From positions 186,001-250,000 of the forward strand of contig NZ_JADKYW010000002.1 in the NCBI RefSeq assembly GCF_015355785.1: DNA of 64,000 nt, given 5' to 3'. The position numbers and the translations under genes are program-made. Below, in pieces: positions 44,597-52,619 of this stretch; the first letter of the stretch is position 1; each line of letters starts with the position of its first letter. The notes beneath the pieces are model-generated. The model was not told where the DNA came from. It saw only the letters and a list, made by a program, of their open reading frames with translations, and searched no databases. Source of the DNA: Arthrobacter gandavensis. GTDB taxonomy: Bacteria > Actinomycetota > Actinomycetes > Actinomycetales > Micrococcaceae.

Positions 44597-45304
44597 ATGG
44601 CGACAGTTATCCTCGTGCGGCACGGCCGCACCACAGCGAATGCCTCCGGCCTGCTGGCCGGCCGCACCCCCGGCGTCAGCCTTGATGACACCGGCCGGGC
44701 GCAGGCGGCAGCAGCGGGCGAGCGGCTCGGCGTCGTGCCCCTGGTGGGCGTAGTGTCCAGTCCGCTGGAGCGCTGCCGCGAAACCGCACAGTTCATCCTG
44801 GACCGCCAGCAGGGTGCCCCGCATGCGCCGGTCGACGCCGGCATCACCGAATGCGACTACGGCCGCTGGCAGGGCCAGACCCTGGCCGACCTGGCGAAGG
44901 AGGATCTGTGGAAGGCGGTGCAGTCGCAGCCGTCGGCGGTCACATTCCCGGGCGGTGAATCCATGGCCGCGATGCAGGCCCGCTCGGTCGCTGCCATCCG
45001 TCGCCACGACGCCGCGTTCGAAGCCGAGCACGGCCCGGGAGCCGTGTGGGCGGCGGTAAGCCACGGGGACATCATCAAATCTGTTCTGGCCGACGCGCTT
45101 GGGATGCACCTGGACCTGTTCCAGCGCATCGACGTCGGGCCGGCTTCCCTGTCGATTGTCCGCTATGGTCCGGGACGCCCCACCGTACACGCCACCAACA
45201 CCGACGCCGGGGACCTCTCTTGGCTGGCCGCCGTCCACGGACAGGAGGATGCACCGGTGGGAGGTGGTGCGGGACACGCAGCGCCGCCCGCGCAAGGAGC
45301 CTAG
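44597..45304 (+). CDS. Histidine phosphatase (MSMEG_4193 family)
   Basis: 235 residues. Phosphoglycerate-mutase-like RHG motif ILVRHGRTTANASGLLAGRT, VSSPLERCRETAQFI, ITECDYGRWQGQTL and second His in AAVSHGDIIKSVLADALG. First gene of a conserved actinobacterial triplet with DUF3090 and SCO1664 genes, which is often found beside mycothiol-synthesis gene mshC. Substrate unknown. Nine bp before the DUF3090 gene. Confidence 0.9.
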   Translation: MATVILVRHGRTTANASGLLAGRTPGVSLDDTGRAQAAAAGERLGVVPLVGVVSSPLERCRETAQFILDRQQGAPHAPVDAGITECDYGRWQGQTLADLAKEDLWKAVQSQPSAVTFPGGESMAAMQARSVAAIRRHDAAFEAEHGPGAVWAAVSHGDIIKSVLADALGMHLDLFQRIDVGPASLSIVRYGPGRPTVHATNTDAGDLSWLAAVHGQEDAPVGGGAGHAAPPAQGA

Positions 45305-45313
45305 AGTAGTCCT

Positions 45314-45874
45314 ATGCCTACAACCGTTCATGATTTCGACTGGCCGGACCGCGTAGTCGTCGGCACCGTCGGCGTCCCGGGCCAGCGTACGTTCTACCTG
45401 CAGGCGAAGGCAGGCAAAGAGCTCATCAGCATTGCGATGGAGAAACTGCAGGCTGACCAGCTGGCCGAGAAGATCGATGAGATCCTGGACCAGCTGATGA
45501 CCATCGACGGCAACCCCTTCTCCGTTCCCGCGAACACTCCGCTGGAGCTTGTGGACAATGACGACCTGGACACTGTGGAGGAACAGTTCCGGGCCGGTGT
45601 GATGAGCCTGGGCTGGGACCCGACGACGGCGCAGGTGGTCATCGAGGCGTACCCCATCGAAGAAGTTGACGAGGATGACGACGGCCTCCTCGACGACGGC
45701 GAAGATGACGACGCCGATGCCGCCGAGGTGCTGCGGGTGCGGATGCCGGTGGGCACCGCACGCGCCTTCGCGAAACGCACGCACGAAGTAGTGGGCGCCG
45801 GGCGTCCCATCTGCGTGATCTGCGGCCAGCCGATCGACGACGACGGCCACACCTGCGCCCTGCCCGAAAACTAA
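45314..45874 (+). CDS. DUF3090 protein
   Basis: 186 residues. HDFDWPDRVVVGTVGVPGQR, FYLQAKAGKELISIAMEKLQ, an acidic stretch (EVDEDDDGLLDDGEDDD) and a C-terminal zinc-knuckle-like CVICGQPIDDDGHTC. Family of unknown function confined to actinobacteria and always in this neighbourhood. The last base of its TAA is the first of the next ATG. Confidence 0.9.
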   Translation: MPTTVHDFDWPDRVVVGTVGVPGQRTFYLQAKAGKELISIAMEKLQADQLAEKIDEILDQLMTIDGNPFSVPANTPLELVDNDDLDTVEEQFRAGVMSLGWDPTTAQVVIEAYPIEEVDEDDDGLLDDGEDDDADAAEVLRVRMPVGTARAFAKRTHEVVGAGRPICVICGQPIDDDGHTCALPEN

Positions 45875-46641
45875 TGCCGGAGCCGGACCTGCTCACTGGT
45901 GAGCTGAGCCTCACCGGGCGGATTACGACGGCGTCCAACGCCACGTTCCTGGGCAGCATCGGCGACGCGGCGGTGGTGTACAAACCCATTGAAGGCGAGA
46001 AACCGCTGTGGGACTTCCCCGACGGGTGCCTGGCCCACCGGGAAGTCGCGGCCTATCTGGTCTCCGAGGCTTTGGGCTGGAACATCGTGCCGCGTACCTG
46101 GCTGCGGGACGGCCCGCTCGGCGAGGGCATGGTCCAGCTGTGGCAGGAAGCTGCCCCGGAGCAGGAAGCGGTGGACCTGGTACCCCTGGAGGCCGTGCCG
46201 GCGTCCGGGTTCAAGCTCGTGCTTGAGGGCGAGGACCAGGCCGGGCGGATCGTCGCCCTGATTCACGAAGACACAGCTGCGCTGCGGCGGATGGCGGTGT
46301 TCGACCTCGTCGTCAACAATGCGGACCGCAAAGGCAACCACGTCCTGGCCATGCCCGGCGGGCACCGGTACGGCGTGGACCACGGAGTCTCGCTGCACGC
46401 CGAGCACAAGCTGCGCACTGTGCTGTGGGGCTGGATCGGCGAGTCATTGACCGCCGAGGAGCTGGCCGGCGTCGACCGGGTTCTGGCAGCGCTGGCAGGT
46501 GACCTCGGCGCGCGGCTGGCAGAGCTGCTGACTCCTGAGGAGATCGAGGCGCTTGCCGCTCGCTGTGCCCGGCTGCGCACGACGGCGGTGTTCCCCGGCC
46601 CGAGCGGCGGGATGCCTGCGGTTCCCTGGCCGCTGTTCTAA
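45874..46641 (+). CDS. SCO1664-family (PI3/PI4-kinase-like fold) protein
   Basis: 255 residues. Shows VVYKPIEGEKPLWDFPDG, HREVAAYLVSEALGW, VFDLVVNNADRKGNHVLAM and YGVDHGVSLHAEHKLRTVLWGW, the kinase-like signature of the SCO1664 family. ATP binding is plausible, activity unproven. End of the conserved triplet; mshC, its frequent next gene, is not found and a bacteriocin-like cassette follows instead. Confidence 0.9.
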   Translation: MPEPDLLTGELSLTGRITTASNATFLGSIGDAAVVYKPIEGEKPLWDFPDGCLAHREVAAYLVSEALGWNIVPRTWLRDGPLGEGMVQLWQEAAPEQEAVDLVPLEAVPASGFKLVLEGEDQAGRIVALIHEDTAALRRMAVFDLVVNNADRKGNHVLAMPGGHRYGVDHGVSLHAEHKLRTVLWGWIGESLTAEELAGVDRVLAALAGDLGARLAELLTPEEIEALAARCARLRTTAVFPGPSGGMPAVPWPLF

Positions 46642-46791
46642 AGACCCCTTGCCGAATTGATTCCGCACCCCAAAATACAAACATGTTTTGACATGTAAGC
46701 GACTCGGAATTCGAGTGCATCCGCACCCTACACGAATTTTGGTGCATATGGATCCCCGCAGCATCCACAATTTTCCATGAGCCCCCGGGTG

Positions 46792-46820
46792 TTGACTCGA
46801 TCATTCTTGGAAGCTAGCGT
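46792..46820 (+). promoter_or_regulatory. Candidate promoter of the bacteriocin-like gene
   Basis: TTGACT (46792-46797), 17-bp spacer, TAGCGT (46815-46820), giving a start near 46827 and a 66-bp leader. The upstream stretch 46642-46790 is visibly AT-richer than the surroundings and holds two ACATGT words at 46681 and 46691. Confidence 0.45.
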
Positions 46821-46892
46821 CGCATGGGTTATTTGAGCTGCAAAATAGACAATTTAACCAAAGACAAAAGCACTAGGAAGGATCCATTCGTC

Positions 46893-47639
46893 ATGAAACC
46901 GACGAGAAGAATCCAATCACTATTTGCTTCATTGGCGGGACTCGCCTTAATTGCGTCCACCGGCGGAGCCGCCAACGCCGGCCCTCGTGACGCGCTGGCG
47001 GAAACGCCCGCATCGGTGACGACCGCGGCCGTATCTTCGGAGCGCGCAGCTGAGGTTACCAGTGAGGCCATGGCGTCACTGGCCAGCGGGGAAGTGGACA
47101 TTCAGGCTTCCCTCGAATCGCTGAAGGCCTCCGACAGCAAGGTCAGCACTGTTTCTACGCCTGACGGGCAATACACGACTGTGACGGTGCCCCTTGGCGA
47201 ACCATATAGCCTAACCAGCAACGTCTCCATGGTCCTCGACAGCACCGGCCACCGGCTCCAGTATTCGGAAACGCTCGTGAGTGAAAATGCTGCCGGCAAG
47301 TTCAACGTCACTACTTACGTGGATGGCACGCTCACCAGCAACCAGGACACCGATTTGGCCTTCATGACGGACGCTGAGCTGAGGGCGGACCTGGCAAATT
47401 CCCAGCCCAAAAGTCCAACATCCGATGGTGGAATGCAGCTGGCTGAGAAGAACACCGGTGCCTGCATCGCGACGGTCCTGGGTGTCGGAGGAGTCGTGGG
47501 GAGCATCATTGCTTACAGCTGCGCAGGTGCCTGTGCCTCTGCCGCAGTAGGCGTTGGAGTTCCCTTCTGCGTCGCCTGCATTGCCGGCTTCGCTACGGTT
47601 GGCGGCGCCTCCATCACTGCGGTCGCAACCTGCTTCTGA
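46893..47639 (+). CDS. Secreted precursor with halocin-C8-like Cys-rich bacteriocin domain
   Basis: 248 residues from ATG 46893 (AGGAAGGA about 10 bp upstream). Signal peptide about 1-30 (MKPTRRIQSLFASLAGLAL then STGGAANA). A Ser/Thr/Asp-rich propeptide runs to about residue 190. The last 58 residues are glycine/alanine-rich and hydrophobic with six Cys: ACIATVLGVGGVVGS, AYSCAGACASAAVGVG, PFCVACIAGFATVGG, ending VATCF. This is the layout of halocin C8 and its bacterial relatives, in which the C-terminal domain is released as a disulfide-bonded antimicrobial and the propart can confer immunity. Confidence 0.72.
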   Translation: MKPTRRIQSLFASLAGLALIASTGGAANAGPRDALAETPASVTTAAVSSERAAEVTSEAMASLASGEVDIQASLESLKASDSKVSTVSTPDGQYTTVTVPLGEPYSLTSNVSMVLDSTGHRLQYSETLVSENAAGKFNVTTYVDGTLTSNQDTDLAFMTDAELRADLANSQPKSPTSDGGMQLAEKNTGACIATVLGVGGVVGSIIAYSCAGACASAAVGVGVPFCVACIAGFATVGGASITAVATCF

Positions 47640-47691
47640 TAAACCGGCAGGGAATGCTCATTTCCCCCGCAGGCAGAACAAAGGAAATCTA

Positions 47692-47913
47692 ATGGATAAA
47701 ACAAACCGATTATTTACAGGCTTGCTGCTAGGAATGGCACTCGCCGGTGCTGCCCTCGTCCTGACACTTCCGGCTCTTTTCGGTTCGCCCGAACCGCATC
47801 AGTTCTGGATAACGGCGGCACTGGGTGGCCTCACTGCAATTCTGGGTATTGCGCTCATCCTCCTGAGACCTCCCCGGAGGGACCATCACAGGGATGGGGC
47901 CCAGCTCAACTAG
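47692..47913 (+). CDS. Small membrane protein downstream of the bacteriocin gene (copy 1)
   Basis: 73 residues, ATG 47692 with AAAGGAAA upstream. Two helices: LFTGLLLGMALAGAALVLTL and FWITAALGGLTAILGIALIL, linked by PALFGSPEPHQ, with a basic C-terminus RPPRRDHHRDG. It is paralogous to the gene at 48116-48322. Position 52 bp after the bacteriocin-like gene suggests an immunity or export role. Confidence 0.72.
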   Translation: MDKTNRLFTGLLLGMALAGAALVLTLPALFGSPEPHQFWITAALGGLTAILGIALILLRPPRRDHHRDGAQLN

Positions 47914-47922
47914 GCAACCTGT

Positions 47923-47970
47923 GACAGCGAAGATGGCCGTCTGCGAGGGCAGACGGCCATCTTCGCTGTC
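47923..47970. terminator. Perfect 22-bp hairpin between the two small membrane genes
   Basis: Left arm 47923-47944 and right arm 47949-47970 are exact inverse complements (core CGAAGATGGCCGTCTGC) around GAGG. It starts 10 bp after the first small gene. No T-run follows, so it may act as a bidirectional or RNA-stabilising structure rather than a classical terminator. Confidence 0.7.
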
Positions 47971-48115
47971 CTGGCGGGGTTTGAGGTCTGTTCCGTCACG
48001 GTCTAGGGTGGCCGGACAGCTGCGGCCGGCGCGCGGGGTTATCCGCCCCACGGCCGCCGGGCACCGAACTTCGGGTCAGACGACCCGCTTTGTTCAGCCA
48101 GGAAAGGAACATCTG

Positions 48116-48322
48116 ATGCACAACAAACCGAACCGGCTCTTCATTGGTTTGCTGCTCGCACTGTCGCTGGCAGCGGCAGCCCTTGTCCTGAGCATTCCCG
48201 GGCTTTTCGGATCGCCCGGCCCGGGGCAGGTCTGGCTCGCGGCAGTGCTGGGAGTCCTTACCGCCGGACTGGGAACGGCCGTCCTGCTGGTTCGGCCGCA
48301 GCGCCGAGGCAACGGCGTTTAG
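48116..48322 (+). CDS. Small membrane protein, paralogue of the preceding gene (copy 2)
   Basis: 68 residues, ATG 48116 with GGAAAGGAA upstream. Same plan as copy 1: NRLFIGLLLALSLAAAALVL, GLFGSPGPGQVWLAAVLGVL and a basic end RPQRRGNG. Around half the positions match copy 1, so it is an old tandem duplication. A strong hairpin separates the two copies. Confidence 0.72.
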   Translation: MHNKPNRLFIGLLLALSLAAAALVLSIPGLFGSPGPGQVWLAAVLGVLTAGLGTAVLLVRPQRRGNGV

Positions 48323-48426: not shown

Positions 48427-49932
48427 TTACACGTCCCGGCGGGTCCTGTTCACGATCTTGGACCGCAGTGTAACCGCCAGCACGATGAAGAGCAGCGAAT
48501 AGAGCACCAGCGGGATGGGTCCGGTGACAAACACGGAGTAGTTCCCGTTGGAGGACAGCAGGGCGTCGCGCATGCTGGTTTCCGCCAGCGGGCCCAGCAC
48601 TACACCGATCATCAGCGGTGCCAGCGGCATCCCGTGGCGGCGCATCAGGAAGCCGACCAGGCCGAGCCCGAGCAGCATCAGCAGGTCGAACACCGCGCCG
48701 GAGGTGGCGTAGACGCCCAGACCGCAGAAGACGGTAATTCCGGCATACAGGTACGGGGCCGGGATGAGCAGCAGCTTGGCCCAGAGCCCGGCGAAGGGCA
48801 GGTTGATGATGAGCAGCACGATCATCGCGATGAAGAAGCTGGCCAGCAGCGCCCACACCAGATCCGGCGACCGGTCGAAGAGCAGCGGGCCCGGCTGCAG
48901 CCCGTACTGCTGGAACGCGGCAAGCATGATCGCGGCCGTGGCCGAGACCGGCAGGCCCAGGGCGAGCAGAGCACCCATGGCGGTGCCGGTGGTGGCGTTG
49001 CCGGCGGCCTCGGGTGCGGCCAGGCCGCGGATCGCGCCCTTGCCGAACTTCGGATGCTTGCGGCGCCGGTCAATGCGCCGTTCCACGTCGTAGGAGATGA
49101 AGGTGGGAATCTCGGACCCGCCGGCAGGAATGACGCCGAAGGGCAGCCCGATGGCGGTGCCTCGGGCCCAGGCCGGGGCTGCCTCTTTGAGTTCAGCGCG
49201 GGAGAGGAAGGGGCGGCCGGCGGAGCTGATCCGCTGGCCGCCCGGATCGCGGCGGATCCGCGAAGCGATGTGGAACACCTCGCCCAGGGCGAGGATGGCT
49301 ACGGTCACCGTAATCAGGGAGATACCGTCGAACATCTCCGGCGCACCGAAACTGAAGCGCTGCGCCCCGGAGAACGGATCAATGCCCACCGTGGCGATGC
49401 CCAGGCCAATCACCAGTGCGGCCAGGCCCTTCACCGCCGAGTCGGCAACCACGGATGAGGTGGCGACGAAGGCGAAGAGTGCCAGGGCAAAGAACTCGGC
49501 GGGGCCGAAGTTCGCGGAGAAGTCGGCTAGGGCCGGGGCCAGGAACACTACGAGGACGGAGGCCACCATGCCGCCGATGAACGCTCCGATGGCCGCGGTG
49601 GCCAGCGCCTGCGCGGCCCTGCCGTCCTTGGCCATTTTGTGCCCCTCGAACGTGGACGCGATGGCCGAGGCCTGCCCGGGTGTGTTCATGAGGATCGCCA
49701 TGGTGGAGTCGCCGAACATCCCGCCGAAGTACACTCCGGCGAACATGATGAACGCGGCCGTGGGATCGAGGGCGAAGGTGATGGGCAGCAGCAGTGCTAC
49801 TGCCATGGAGGAACCCAGTCCCGGCAGCACGCCGACGGCGGTGCCCAGGAGGCAGCCGACGAGTACCCACAGCAGGTTCATGGGGGTCAGGGCGGAGGAG
49901 AAACCTTCCGCCAACAGGTTGAGTGAATCCAT
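48427..49932 (-). CDS. tctA: Tripartite tricarboxylate transporter large permease
   Basis: 501 residues from ATG 49932. About twelve helices with the TctA signatures VGCLLGTAVGVLPGLGSSMA, YFGGMFGDSTMAILMNTPG, and a second inverted motif GLPFGVIPAGGSEIPTFISY with AAPEAAGNATTGTAMGALL. Na+-coupled uptake of carboxylates such as citrate, with TctB and the binding protein encoded just upstream. The longer in-frame start at 50025 would overlap tctB strongly. Confidence 0.92.
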   Translation of the reverse strand: MDSLNLLAEGFSSALTPMNLLWVLVGCLLGTAVGVLPGLGSSMAVALLLPITFALDPTAAFIMFAGVYFGGMFGDSTMAILMNTPGQASAIASTFEGHKMAKDGRAAQALATAAIGAFIGGMVASVLVVFLAPALADFSANFGPAEFFALALFAFVATSSVVADSAVKGLAALVIGLGIATVGIDPFSGAQRFSFGAPEMFDGISLITVTVAILALGEVFHIASRIRRDPGGQRISSAGRPFLSRAELKEAAPAWARGTAIGLPFGVIPAGGSEIPTFISYDVERRIDRRRKHPKFGKGAIRGLAAPEAAGNATTGTAMGALLALGLPVSATAAIMLAAFQQYGLQPGPLLFDRSPDLVWALLASFFIAMIVLLIINLPFAGLWAKLLLIPAPYLYAGITVFCGLGVYATSGAVFDLLMLLGLGLVGFLMRRHGMPLAPLMIGVVLGPLAETSMRDALLSSNGNYSVFVTGPIPLVLYSLLFIVLAVTLRSKIVNRTRRDV

Positions 49933-49933
49933 G

Positions 49934-50500
49934 TTAGAAACCGCCTCCAAGGATGCCGGAGGGGAGGTTGAGTCCCAGGCCGACGGTGAATGCCAGGTAG
50001 ACCGCACTGCTGAACAGCAGCGCAAAGGAGATGTCGAACAGGGGGCGGCGGCTGCCGAAGCCCCTGGCTACAAACCAGAACAGCATGGCGCCGGCAATGA
50101 TCCAGCCCAGTCTCTCCAGGGACAGGGCGAAGAGCAGGAAGCCTCCCACCGCCCACAGCACGGCGGTCCAGTCCGTGAATGTCCGGAACTGCTGTGCGGA
50201 CGTCTCCTGCGGACGTTCCGGCGAGCGCAGATAGTGCAGCGCCAGCAGAACGGCGAGGACGTAGCCGGCGATCATCAGAATGCCGGGGAAGAACTTCGGA
50301 CCGGGAAAGTCCGTCTCCCCCACATCCATGGTGAGGATGCCAATCAGCAGGTACGTGCTGAAGAGCACCATCAGCAGGGACAGCAGCAGTCCGCTGCGGC
50401 CGTCCCACCATGAGGTACGGGATGAGGTCTGGCCCGCATCAGCGGTTTCGGTCCGCTGCGGTTCCGTTGCGGGTGCGGGCGGGGGCACTGGATTGCTCAT
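49934..50500 (-). CDS. tctB: Tripartite tricarboxylate transporter small permease
   Basis: 188 residues. Hydrophilic N-terminus (about 1-36) then four helices: LLLSLLMVLFSTYLLIGIL, FPGILMIAGYVLAVLLAL, TAVLWAVGGFLLFALSL and ISFALLFSSAVYLAFTVGL, with GPKFFPGIL conserved. Stop lies 1 bp before tctA's start; its start overlaps the stop of tctC by 1 bp. Confidence 0.88.
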   Translation of the reverse strand: MSNPVPPPAPATEPQRTETADAGQTSSRTSWWDGRSGLLLSLLMVLFSTYLLIGILTMDVGETDFPGPKFFPGILMIAGYVLAVLLALHYLRSPERPQETSAQQFRTFTDWTAVLWAVGGFLLFALSLERLGWIIAGAMLFWFVARGFGSRRPLFDISFALLFSSAVYLAFTVGLGLNLPSGILGGGF

Positions 50501-51513
50501 CAGCCAATCTCCTTTACGAGTTCACCGATGCGCTGCTGCTCGGAGGCCATGAACTCTTCGAACTCGTCTCCGGCGAGGTAAACGTCGGCCCACTTATTGC
50601 GGTCCACCGCGTCCTTCCACTCGGGAGTCGCGATAGTTTCCTCGATCAAAGTGCGGAGCTCCGCGAATTCCTCATCCGTGATTCCCGGAGGTGCCACGAT
50701 GGCCCGCCAGTTGGCCAGATCGACGTCGTACCCTTGCTCAGCCAGGGTGGGGATATCGACGCCGTCGAGCCGCTGCGGGGCAGCCAGCCCGAGCGCGCGC
50801 AGGCGGCCCGAGTTGATCTGGTCCTCCACATCCTTGTACCCGGAGGTGGCTGCCTTGGCGGTATCCGTGATGAGGGCCTGCGCGGCCTCTCCTCCGCCGG
50901 ACTTGGGAATGTACGTGGTGTCGGAGGGACTGACTCCGGCGGCGAGCGCGAGCTCGGTCATGACCAGCTGGTCAAAGGTGCCGCCGCCGGTCCAGGCGAT
51001 CGCCTTCGGGTTCGCCTTCCACGCCTGCACCAGGTCATCCAGGGTCTTGTATGGGGAGCTGGCCGGAACAACAACGACGTCGTACTCCTCCACCACCCGG
51101 GCGATGGGCCGCACGTCGTCGTGCGTTACGGCCGAATCCAGCTGCGCGACGCCGGCCACCAGGCCCGCGCCGGTGACCATCAGGTTATTTGCCTGCCCGG
51201 ACATGGTGGAGAGCTGGCCGAGACCAATGGTGCCCGCTGCGCCGGGGATGTTGACCACCTGGGTGTTATTCACCAATCCGTTGGCACGCATGGCCTGCTG
51301 CTGCTCACGCATGAACATGTCCCAGCCTCCGCCGGCACCTGCCGGGGCGATCAGGGTGAGGTTTGCACGTATGTCCGAACCACCGGACGCGGACTGGATG
51401 GAGAAGAAGCTGGCCAGGCCGATTGTGGCAACAGCCACGACGCCGTAAACGGCCATGAGGACCGGATGCTTACGGCGCGTGCCGGACCCGGCCTGATCTG
51501 GTGACGAACTCAC
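50500..51513 (-). CDS. tctC: Tripartite tricarboxylate transporter substrate-binding protein
   Basis: 337 residues if the GTG at 51513 is used (AAGGA 11 bp upstream); ATG 51549 is an alternative. N-terminal hydrophobic segment HPVLMAVYGVVAVATIGLASF is more like an anchor than a lipobox. The domain shows LIAPAGAGGGWDMFMREQQQ, VNIPGAAGTIG, VVVVPASSPYKTLDDLVQAW, IAWTGGGTFDQLV and LANWRAIVAPPGITDE, typical of TctC/BugT binders of carboxylates. First gene of tctCBA; no two-component genes nearby. Confidence 0.9.
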   Translation of the reverse strand: MSSSPDQAGSGTRRKHPVLMAVYGVVAVATIGLASFFSIQSASGGSDIRANLTLIAPAGAGGGWDMFMREQQQAMRANGLVNNTQVVNIPGAAGTIGLGQLSTMSGQANNLMVTGAGLVAGVAQLDSAVTHDDVRPIARVVEEYDVVVVPASSPYKTLDDLVQAWKANPKAIAWTGGGTFDQLVMTELALAAGVSPSDTTYIPKSGGGEAAQALITDTAKAATSGYKDVEDQINSGRLRALGLAAPQRLDGVDIPTLAEQGYDVDLANWRAIVAPPGITDEEFAELRTLIEETIATPEWKDAVDRNKWADVYLAGDEFEEFMASEQQRIGELVKEIG

Positions 51514-51755
51514 GAAATCAACTGTCCTTAGTGGGGGTCGGTGGGACATGAACGCTGGCCGGTGCCGTTCGATGCACCGACCATCCAACGACGATAAGTG
51601 ATCCCGGTCATATCACGGCGATCGGATGATCAGCCGCCTTCATAAAGTGCACTGATTTTGCTTTTTCCACTCGGCACGTGGAGCCTGAAGAACTAATTCG
51701 CTCTCAGGGTGAATGCGTTGTCATCTCTCGTCACCCCGCCAACCTCGGAGAACTC

Positions 51756-52160: not shown

Positions 52161-52619
52161 CTAGCGTCCGGCTCCTGACCCGGCGACAAGGAATTCGTTC
52201 CGGGTTTCGATGAGGTTTTGCAGGTAGCGCGCCAGCACGAGTTTCTCCACCAGCCGGCCGAGTGGCCCGAAGGGCGCCTCGAACTCGATGCGGTCCACCA
52301 TGATGGTGTCCGCCGCGTCTTCGCTGAACTCGTGGACGTGCCGGAACCGCCGGAACGGCCCCTTGACCTGCTCATCGACGAAGCGGTTGGGGACTTCCAT
52401 TGCGGTGATCCGGCTCGTCATCCTGAGCGGCACGCCGAAGTGCCAGGCCCGCCACGTGACGTCCTCGCCTAGGGAAATCAGTCCCGTAGTCACACCTGCG
52501 ACCGCCTCTTCGCGGGAGCGCGCCATCGAGTCTTTGTGGGCGTCGATGCTCCGCGCACGGTCGAACAGTTCAGCCCTGGGCATGGCGGTGCGCGTGATGC
52601 ACTCGAAGGAAACGGTCAT
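52161..52619 (-). CDS. SRPBCC-family protein
   Basis: 152 residues. FECITRTAMPRAELFDRARSID, VTWRAWHFGVPLRMTSRITAME, RFVDEQVKGPFRRFRHVHEFSE and IEFEAPFGPLGRLVEKLVLARYL are the usual parts of cyclase/dehydrase-like SRPBCC proteins. The ligand is unknown. Single-gene unit. Confidence 0.83.
   Translation of the reverse strand: MTVSFECITRTAMPRAELFDRARSIDAHKDSMARSREEAVAGVTTGLISLGEDVTWRAWHFGVPLRMTSRITAMEVPNRFVDEQVKGPFRRFRHVHEFSEDAADTIMVDRIEFEAPFGPLGRLVEKLVLARYLQNLIETRNEFLVAGSGAGR

What the first reader, a model, noticed from the sequence alone, without database searches (positions are those of the whole stretch)
46642..48322. Halocin-C8-like bacteriocin cassette with two paralogous mini-membrane proteins
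A secreted 248-residue precursor ends in a 58-residue Gly/Ala-rich domain with six Cys, followed by two homologous 70-residue, two-helix proteins. The area is AT-richer than its surroundings and directly follows the conserved phosphatase-DUF3090-SCO1664 triplet, at a place often taken by mshC. The two small proteins may be immunity or export factors; none is described to my knowledge.
Basis: partly seen in the sequence, partly recalled or inferred. Interest (0 to 1): 0.75.

Follow-up and report, generated by a model that had tools for sequence, protein, structure and literature searches.

The report
New secreted bacteriocin with immunity genes
A soil actinobacterium carries a probable new type of secreted antibacterial peptide, together with a tiny membrane protein that probably protects its maker; toxin-free relatives keep a copy of the protector alone, at the same place.

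Summary
In detail: 46893-47639 encodes a 248-aa secreted precursor with six Cys, all in its last 58 residues, followed by two two-helix proteins (73 and 68 aa, 61% identical). The halocin C8 label fails: TIGR04449 and profile-profile comparison find nothing. It is an unnamed actinobacterial family. Of 19 loci with an intact core, 19 share C-x17/18-C-x3-C-x7-11-C-x2-C-x14-17-C, and 19 have a two-helix gene of 58-78 aa within 68 nt behind the precursor (background: 1 of 90 window ORFs, this one). The core is far more constrained than the pro-region. The two small genes are no tandem duplication. The second is resident: four precursor-free congeners keep its ortholog (79-84%) after the same phosphatase-DUF3090-SCO1664 triplet, under purifying selection (pN/pS 0.32, CI 0.18-0.51), behind a shared promoter-like element. 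The first came with the AT-richer cassette; a relative of the pair sits on an Arthrobacter plasmid. Best reading: a Sec-secreted, probably disulfide-bonded bacteriocin with its immunity gene, placed beside an older orphan immunity gene. Activity, processing and immunity are inferred, not tested.

The parts
46893..47639 (+). bacteriocin precursor, 248 aa: signal peptide about residues 1-29, pro-domain about 30-186, Cys core 187-248 (boundaries by eye; cleavage sites unknown)
   Evidence: ORF and translation; family alignments; AF2 model: one helix plus six strands in residues 49-153, block pLDDT 66-84 for residues 51-150, core under 40
47451..47636 (+). C-terminal core with six Cys, C-x18-C-x3-C-x11-C-x2-C-x17-C
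   Evidence: pattern in 19 of 19 intact-core loci, 17 with exactly this spacing; pN/pS 0.06-0.08
47692..47913 (+). first two-helix small protein (sm1, 73 aa), probable cognate immunity protein, 52 nt after the precursor
   Evidence: same arrangement in 19 of 19 intact-core loci; AF2 two helices, mean pLDDT 70
47923..47970 (+). perfect 22-bp inverted repeat, hairpin after sm1; probable transcript end (inference; not listed by the terminator scan)
   Evidence: the repeat finder; RNA fold of 47910-47985 -54.9 kcal/mol, z -8.0
47979..48019 (+). conserved element upstream of sm2, TTGAGG-N17-TAGGGT; read here as its own promoter (inference)
   Evidence: shared with the four precursor-free congeners (sequences; part of it); not reported by the sigma-70 scan
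48116..48322 (+). second two-helix small protein (sm2, 68 aa), resident orphan immunity-type gene
   Evidence: 79-84% orthologs at the same locus in four congeners without precursor
45874..46641 (+). SCO1664 family gene, left flank of the insertion (context)
   Evidence: TIGR03843 E 3e-107
45314..45874 (+). DUF3090 gene (context)
   Evidence: PF11290 E 3e-61
44597..45304 (+). histidine phosphatase gene (context)
   Evidence: PF00300 E 1e-47

Best explanation
A Sec-exported peptide bacteriocin with its immunity gene. Shown by sequence: a precursor with signal-peptide-like start, pro-domain and a highly conserved six-Cys, Gly/Ala-rich core; a two-helix membrane protein gene directly behind it in every intact-core locus examined; and an older, separately kept copy of that membrane protein at the same locus. 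Inferred: the precursor leaves through the general secretion pathway, the pro-domain keeps the core harmless and soluble, disulfides form outside the cell (the near-symmetric spacing 18-3-11-2-17 suggests nested pairs C1-C6, C2-C5, C3-C4), an unknown protease releases the roughly 60-residue peptide, and this inserts into or permeabilises the membrane of related bacteria. The two-helix protein sits in the producer's membrane and blocks the peptide. In this strain the cassette (about 46642-47975) lies between SCO1664 and a resident orphan immunity gene (sm2), so the strain carries two immunity genes, one in the toxin operon and one behind its own conserved promoter-like element.
For: 19 of 19 intact-core loci carry a 58-78 aa gene with two hydrophobic segments at -1 to +68 nt, against 1 of 90 window ORFs of at least 200 aa, that one being this gene. 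Cys pattern in 19 of 19. Core pN/pS 0.06-0.08, pro-region 0.30-0.41. Sporadic distribution, as in bacteriocins: precursor in 2 of 29 same-genus genomes (the 29 are listed; a third hit, G023 at E 0.005 in a 914-aa frame, is discounted); core matches in 16 of 395 family genomes including weak ones, 12 with E<1e-16; 8 of 396 order genomes; own genome counted each time. A mobilizable Arthrobacter agilis plasmid carries the pair. Immunity rather than export: orthologs of sm2 without precursor in G016, G022, G023, G024 at the same locus, purifying selection there (pN/pS 0.324, CI 0.18-0.51, 0 of 2000 bootstraps at or above 1), conserved upstream element. Six loci with a broken, remnant or stop-containing precursor keep an open small gene with two hydrophobic segments.
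Against: No activity data. No HMM, PDB or fold match names core or small protein. The AF2 core is unreliable (pLDDT under 40), so helices and disulfide pairing are guesses. The 6-to-0 excess of broken precursors over broken small genes is what gene length alone could give (747 versus about 205 nt: probability about 0.23, hand calculation), so it carries little weight alone. Three more of the 19 intact-core loci (G327, G397, G1037) show no clear signal-peptide start in frame, so 16 of 19 have one (by eye). In the G327/G470 pair the small gene shows pN/pS 1.01, so it is not constrained everywhere. Synonymous sites are near saturation in several comparisons. I recognised no linked processing protease or exporter among the seven flanking genes scanned, and scanned no further.
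Confidence: 0.72

Rival explanations
1. Halocin-C8-style self-immunity: the pro-domain of the precursor is the immunity protein (like HalI), and the two-helix proteins are accessory factors for export, anchoring or processing.
For: Same gross architecture (long pro-region, C-terminal Cys core). A review states that ProC8 matures into the immune peptide HalI and halocin C8 (passages of PMC11509114). Two of three haloarchaeal halocin C8-like genes fetched also have a 68-aa ORF directly behind them, in a system where HalI is the known immunity factor.
Against: No detectable homology of pro-regions. Small genes are kept without any precursor in four congeners, where an accessory factor would have no client. 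Among the hits examined, the one pro-domain-only hit (L006) is a decayed full gene; stand-alone pro-domain genes were not searched for separately.
Confidence: 0.13
2. The peptide is not antibacterial: it is a secreted signal or surface peptide, and the two-helix protein is its receptor, chaperone or export partner.
For: No activity data; the core profile matches no chain of the PDB at E<=10.
Against: Sporadic presence, plasmid carriage, broken copies with open neighbour, and orphan neighbours under purifying selection fit a toxin-immunity pair better.
Confidence: 0.11
3. The cassette is decaying or not expressed in this strain; only the resident sm2 still works.
For: Several relatives carry broken precursors; no sigma-70-like promoter was found upstream of the precursor.
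Against: The window's precursor is open and has all six Cys, and the core is under strong constraint against ATA002 and Leaf234 (pN/pS 0.06-0.08).
Confidence: 0.04

Closest known systems
Halocin C8 / TIGR04449 halocin_C8_dom (haloarchaea)
   Same: Large secreted preproprotein with a Cys-rich, Gly/Ala-rich C-terminal peptide; in two of three haloarchaeal loci fetched, a 68-aa ORF follows directly.
   Different: No HMM match, hhalign not significant, six Cys in another pattern (ten invariant Cys in the three haloarchaeal cores aligned), no twin-arginine start common to the family (by eye); separate small immunity-type gene instead of, or besides, HalI.
Lactococcin 972 family
   Same: Bacteriocin usually associated with putative transmembrane immunity proteins (stated in passages of PMC10456417).
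   Different: No Pfam or NCBIfam match; the long pro-domain and six-Cys core differ (lactococcin 972 details recalled).
Circular bacteriocins (AS-48 type, reported in Arthrobacter sp. APC 3897, PMC10456417 passages)
   Same: Small hydrophobic peptide in Arthrobacter.
   Different: That cluster has ten genes including a DUF95 protein and ATP-binding/transport proteins; here a two-gene cassette with signal-peptide-like start and six Cys; none of the seven flanking genes scanned is such a part.

Membership tests
Halocin C8 family (TIGR04449) | match to the halocin_C8_dom HMM above its cut-off (24 bits) | tested here: not met
   no match in own genome at E<=10; the same search is over the cut-off in 1 of 14 control genomes; NCBIfam scan of the precursor 0 families at E<=1; none of 10 family members matched it at E<=1
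Halocin C8 family (TIGR04449) | sequence relation to real halocin C8-like precursors | tested here: not met
   hhalign of 10 precursors vs 3 haloarchaeal precursors: probability 0.2%; cores (7 vs 3): 0.3%; shallow profiles, so remote kinship is not excluded
Halocin C8 family (TIGR04449) | large preproprotein with C-terminal Cys-rich peptide | tested here: met
Halocin C8 family (TIGR04449) | Tat-dependent export | tested here: inconclusive
   the window has RR but no full Tat motif by eye; several relatives lack RR; no predictor run
Halocin C8 family (TIGR04449) | pro-region acts as immunity protein (HalI) | not testable with these tools
   needs expression assays
Bacteriocin with cognate immunity gene (functional kind) | conserved adjacent small membrane protein gene | tested here: met
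   19 of 19 intact-core loci
Bacteriocin with cognate immunity gene (functional kind) | immunity-type gene kept where the toxin is absent | tested here: met
   four congeners at the same locus, pN/pS 0.32
Bacteriocin with cognate immunity gene (functional kind) | antibacterial activity and protection | not testable with these tools
   bench test needed
Lactococcin 972 and other curated bacteriocin families | match to a Pfam or NCBIfam family | tested here: not met
   (one member grazes Bac51 NF041453 at E 0.33, treated as chance)

The most novel reading that the evidence does not exclude
A bacteriocin architecture shared by actinobacteria and haloarchaea beyond sequence recognition: folded secreted pro-domain, Cys-rich core, and a small hydrophobic immunity protein directly downstream. 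If so, the 68-aa ORF behind haloarchaeal halocin C8 genes would be an overlooked second immunity factor besides HalI.
Probability: 0.15. Interest if true: 0.75.

Novelty: new variant of a known kind. Interest (0 to 1): 0.55.

Why it matters
It defines an unnamed bacteriocin family across several families of actinobacteria that the HMM libraries searched do not recognise (the A. agilis plasmid copy is annotated 'hypothetical protein'). It comes with a testable immunity protein of about 70 aa and a natural experiment: the immunity-type gene is retained, with a conserved upstream element, in relatives that lack the toxin. Motif and gene pair give a simple way to mine more of them.

Tried and rejected
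Halocin C8 membership: rejected by HMM and by profile-profile comparison. In 396 phylum genomes TIGR04449 gave one hit, below its cut-off (18.9 bits, L018); the ORFs there, seen, do not resemble the core.

Tandem duplication of the small genes: rejected, because sm2 has orthologs at the same locus in precursor-free congeners and is nearer to them (path 0.29-0.31) than to the next row, ATA002 (1.13), in the tree. The clade itself is drawn open, so this rests on path length, identity and synteny. Which came first is not settled: ATA002, the other precursor-bearing member of the genus, has its cassette near fragments of the same triplet, so loss of the cassette in the four is possible instead of gain in the window.

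Phage origin: two scans of viral contigs found no relative; the small protein's best BFVD match had E 0.59; Phage_holin_2 hits (2 of 9 small proteins, best E 0.001, under the cut-off for the window's own) are taken as generic hydrophobic similarity.

Pro-domain fold: VIA-align best Z 5.9 (Al-CPI, a cystatin by recall), YpmB at 5.1-5.2; too low to show kinship, only a hint at a cystatin/PepSY-like layout. The absence of a better match says nothing.

Counting broken precursors as proof of immunity: dropped, as gene length alone could give the excess. Rows left out of the 19-locus count: duplicates (L019=L012, L020=window, L023 and L002=L011, L026=L003, L035 within L006), hits without the core pattern or in unrelated frames (L004, L005, L016, L018, L032, L033, L034), two loci with an in-frame TAG (L024, L027) and four broken or remnant loci (L006, L015, L028, L031); the last six all keep the small gene. 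The 19 include G327, G397 and G1037, whose N-terminal parts look irregular. Starts of some small genes in relatives were chosen by eye; hydrophobic segments are Kyte-Doolittle windows, not a trained predictor. Weak same-genus hits of sm2 (G007, G018, E 0.003-0.005) were not counted.

Literature: searches of the held library with halocin C8 terms, 'Arthrobacter'+'bacteriocin'+'immunity protein', prodomain/signal peptide/Micrococcales terms and two-transmembrane/immunity/actinobacterial terms listed no paper recognisable, from title and abstract start, as describing this family. Only passages of PMC11509114 and PMC10456417 were read.

Full report
OBSERVATION. The described genes are there. The precursor is 46893-47639 (248 aa), with six Cys, all in residues 191-248; the small proteins are 47692-47913 (73 aa) and 48116-48322 (68 aa). 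The small proteins are 61% identical and each has two hydrophobic segments; AlphaFold2 gives two helices for the first, mean pLDDT 70. A histidine phosphatase, DUF3090 and SCO1664 precede them. The region is AT-richer (GC 0.57 for 46642-47975; GC3 of precursor 0.68 and sm1 0.58 versus 0.85 for SCO1664), while sm2 is closer to the chromosome (GC3 0.74). mshC lies on another contig of this genome.

NOT HALOCIN C8 BY MEMBERSHIP. Pfam, NCBIfam and PHROGs give no credible hit for precursor or small proteins. TIGR04449 finds nothing in the genome at E 10. I fetched three annotated halocin C8-like loci from haloarchaeal plasmids and compared profiles: not significant for whole precursors or cores. 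The profiles are shallow, so a very remote relation stays possible.

A FAMILY WITH A FIXED GENE PAIR. Tallies, own genome and weak hits included: 5 of 148 relatives, 5 of 394 class genomes, 16 of 395 family genomes, 12 with E<1e-16, 8 of 396 order genomes; 3 of 38 and 1 of 15 in two other genera. The sets overlap. After removing duplicates and non-members, 19 loci have an intact core; 16 of them have a signal-peptide-like start in frame, while G327, G397 and G1037 look irregular at the N-terminus (by eye). In 19 of 19 the six Cys follow C-x17/18-C-x3-C-x7-11-C-x2-C-x14-17-C, in 17 exactly 18-3-11-2-17. In 19 of 19 a gene of 58-78 aa with two hydrophobic segments starts -1 to +68 nt after the precursor. 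Among 90 ORFs of at least 200 aa in the window (both strands, mechanical), one is followed by such a gene, and it is this one. The core is far more conserved than the pro-region: pN/pS 0.08 versus 0.30 against ATA002, and 0.06 versus 0.41 against Leaf234 (synonymous sites near saturation in several of these).

THE SECOND SMALL GENE IS RESIDENT. A search with sm2 in 148 relatives found strong orthologs (79-84%) in four same-genus genomes, G016, G022, G023 and G024. None of them has a credible precursor in the search; G023 gave one hit at E 0.005 inside a 914-aa frame, which I discount. In the four the order is phosphatase, DUF3090, SCO1664, (in three a homolog of window 52161-52619, polyketide-cyclase-like below cut-off), sm2. 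In G023 sm2 follows SCO1664 after 174 nt, so relative to it the window carries an insertion of about 46642-47975 holding precursor, sm1 and a perfect 22-bp hairpin. Upstream of sm2 all five genomes share GTTTGAGGTCTG...TCTAGGGTGGCC, readable as TTGAGG-N17-TAGGGT (in one search two of the five were cut short of its left part); calling it a promoter is inference, and the sigma-70 scan did not list it. The four orphans are under purifying selection, pN/pS 0.324, 95% CI 0.18-0.51. Two further same-genus genomes, G006 and G010, carry 47% relatives, so 6 of 29 same-genus genomes have a small gene of this type without the precursor. In the tree sm2 is nearest to the four orphans and sm1 to the ATA002 copy. 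In ATA002 the cassette lies near fragments of DUF3090, SCO1664 and the TPP enzyme gene, so both precursor-bearing genomes of the genus have it in this neighbourhood; gain in these two, or loss in the others, is not settled.

BROKEN PRECURSORS. Six loci have a damaged or interrupted precursor but an open small gene: G470 (5' truncated), G968 (a core remnant of about 24 aa), G060b (core remnant in another frame), G1109 (frameshift), and G1019 and G1025 (in-frame TAG). This agrees with immunity but is weak alone, because the precursor is the larger target. One pair (G327/G470) shows no constraint on the small gene (pN/pS 1.01).

MECHANISM. Shown: architecture, gene pairing, constraint, orphan retention, synteny. 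Inferred: Sec export, disulfide bonding, proteolytic release, membrane action, and immunity by the two-helix protein. The AF2 pro-domain (residues 51-150, block pLDDT 66-84) is a helix plus six strands with only weak cystatin/PepSY-like resemblance, which would suit an inhibitory or chaperone pro-region; the core model is unreliable (under 40).

NOVELTY. Functionally this is a bacteriocin-immunity cassette, a known kind; the family appears unnamed in the libraries searched and in the paper searches made. Orphan immunity genes are mentioned for other bacteriocin systems (search listing only). What is new is the family, its six-Cys core, its constant small partner, and a clean case of cassette plus resident orphan at one locus.

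Noticed in passing
L024 1300-1314 and L027 1318-1332: Two relatives from different genera have an in-frame TAG at the same codon of the pro-domain and an ATG exactly four codons later, where the ten precursors have Thr; the rest of the frame, including all six Cys, is open. Convergent decay, read-through or re-initiation; unexplained.
   Followed up: partly
L037 2304-2510 and 1033-1260; L038 2299-2505 and 1026-1253: Haloarchaeal halocin C8-like genes (2 of 3 fetched) are followed directly by a 68-aa hydrophobic ORF and preceded by a divergent 75-aa membrane ORF.
   Followed up: partly
L003 3390-3620 (- strand): A 76-aa Gly/Ala-rich ORF with two Cys, followed by a 127-aa membrane-protein-like ORF, 1.2 kb from the G060 precursor: looks like a second, unrelated bacteriocin pair.
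   Followed up: no
L011 7202-7282 and 8269-8361: In Arthrobacter sp. ATA002 fragments of the TPP enzyme gene and of DUF3090 lie just behind the cassette, signs of rearrangement in this neighbourhood.
   Followed up: partly
window 48427-51588 (- strand): A tripartite tricarboxylate transporter operon (TctA, TctB, TctC by Pfam) lies right after sm2.
   Followed up: partly
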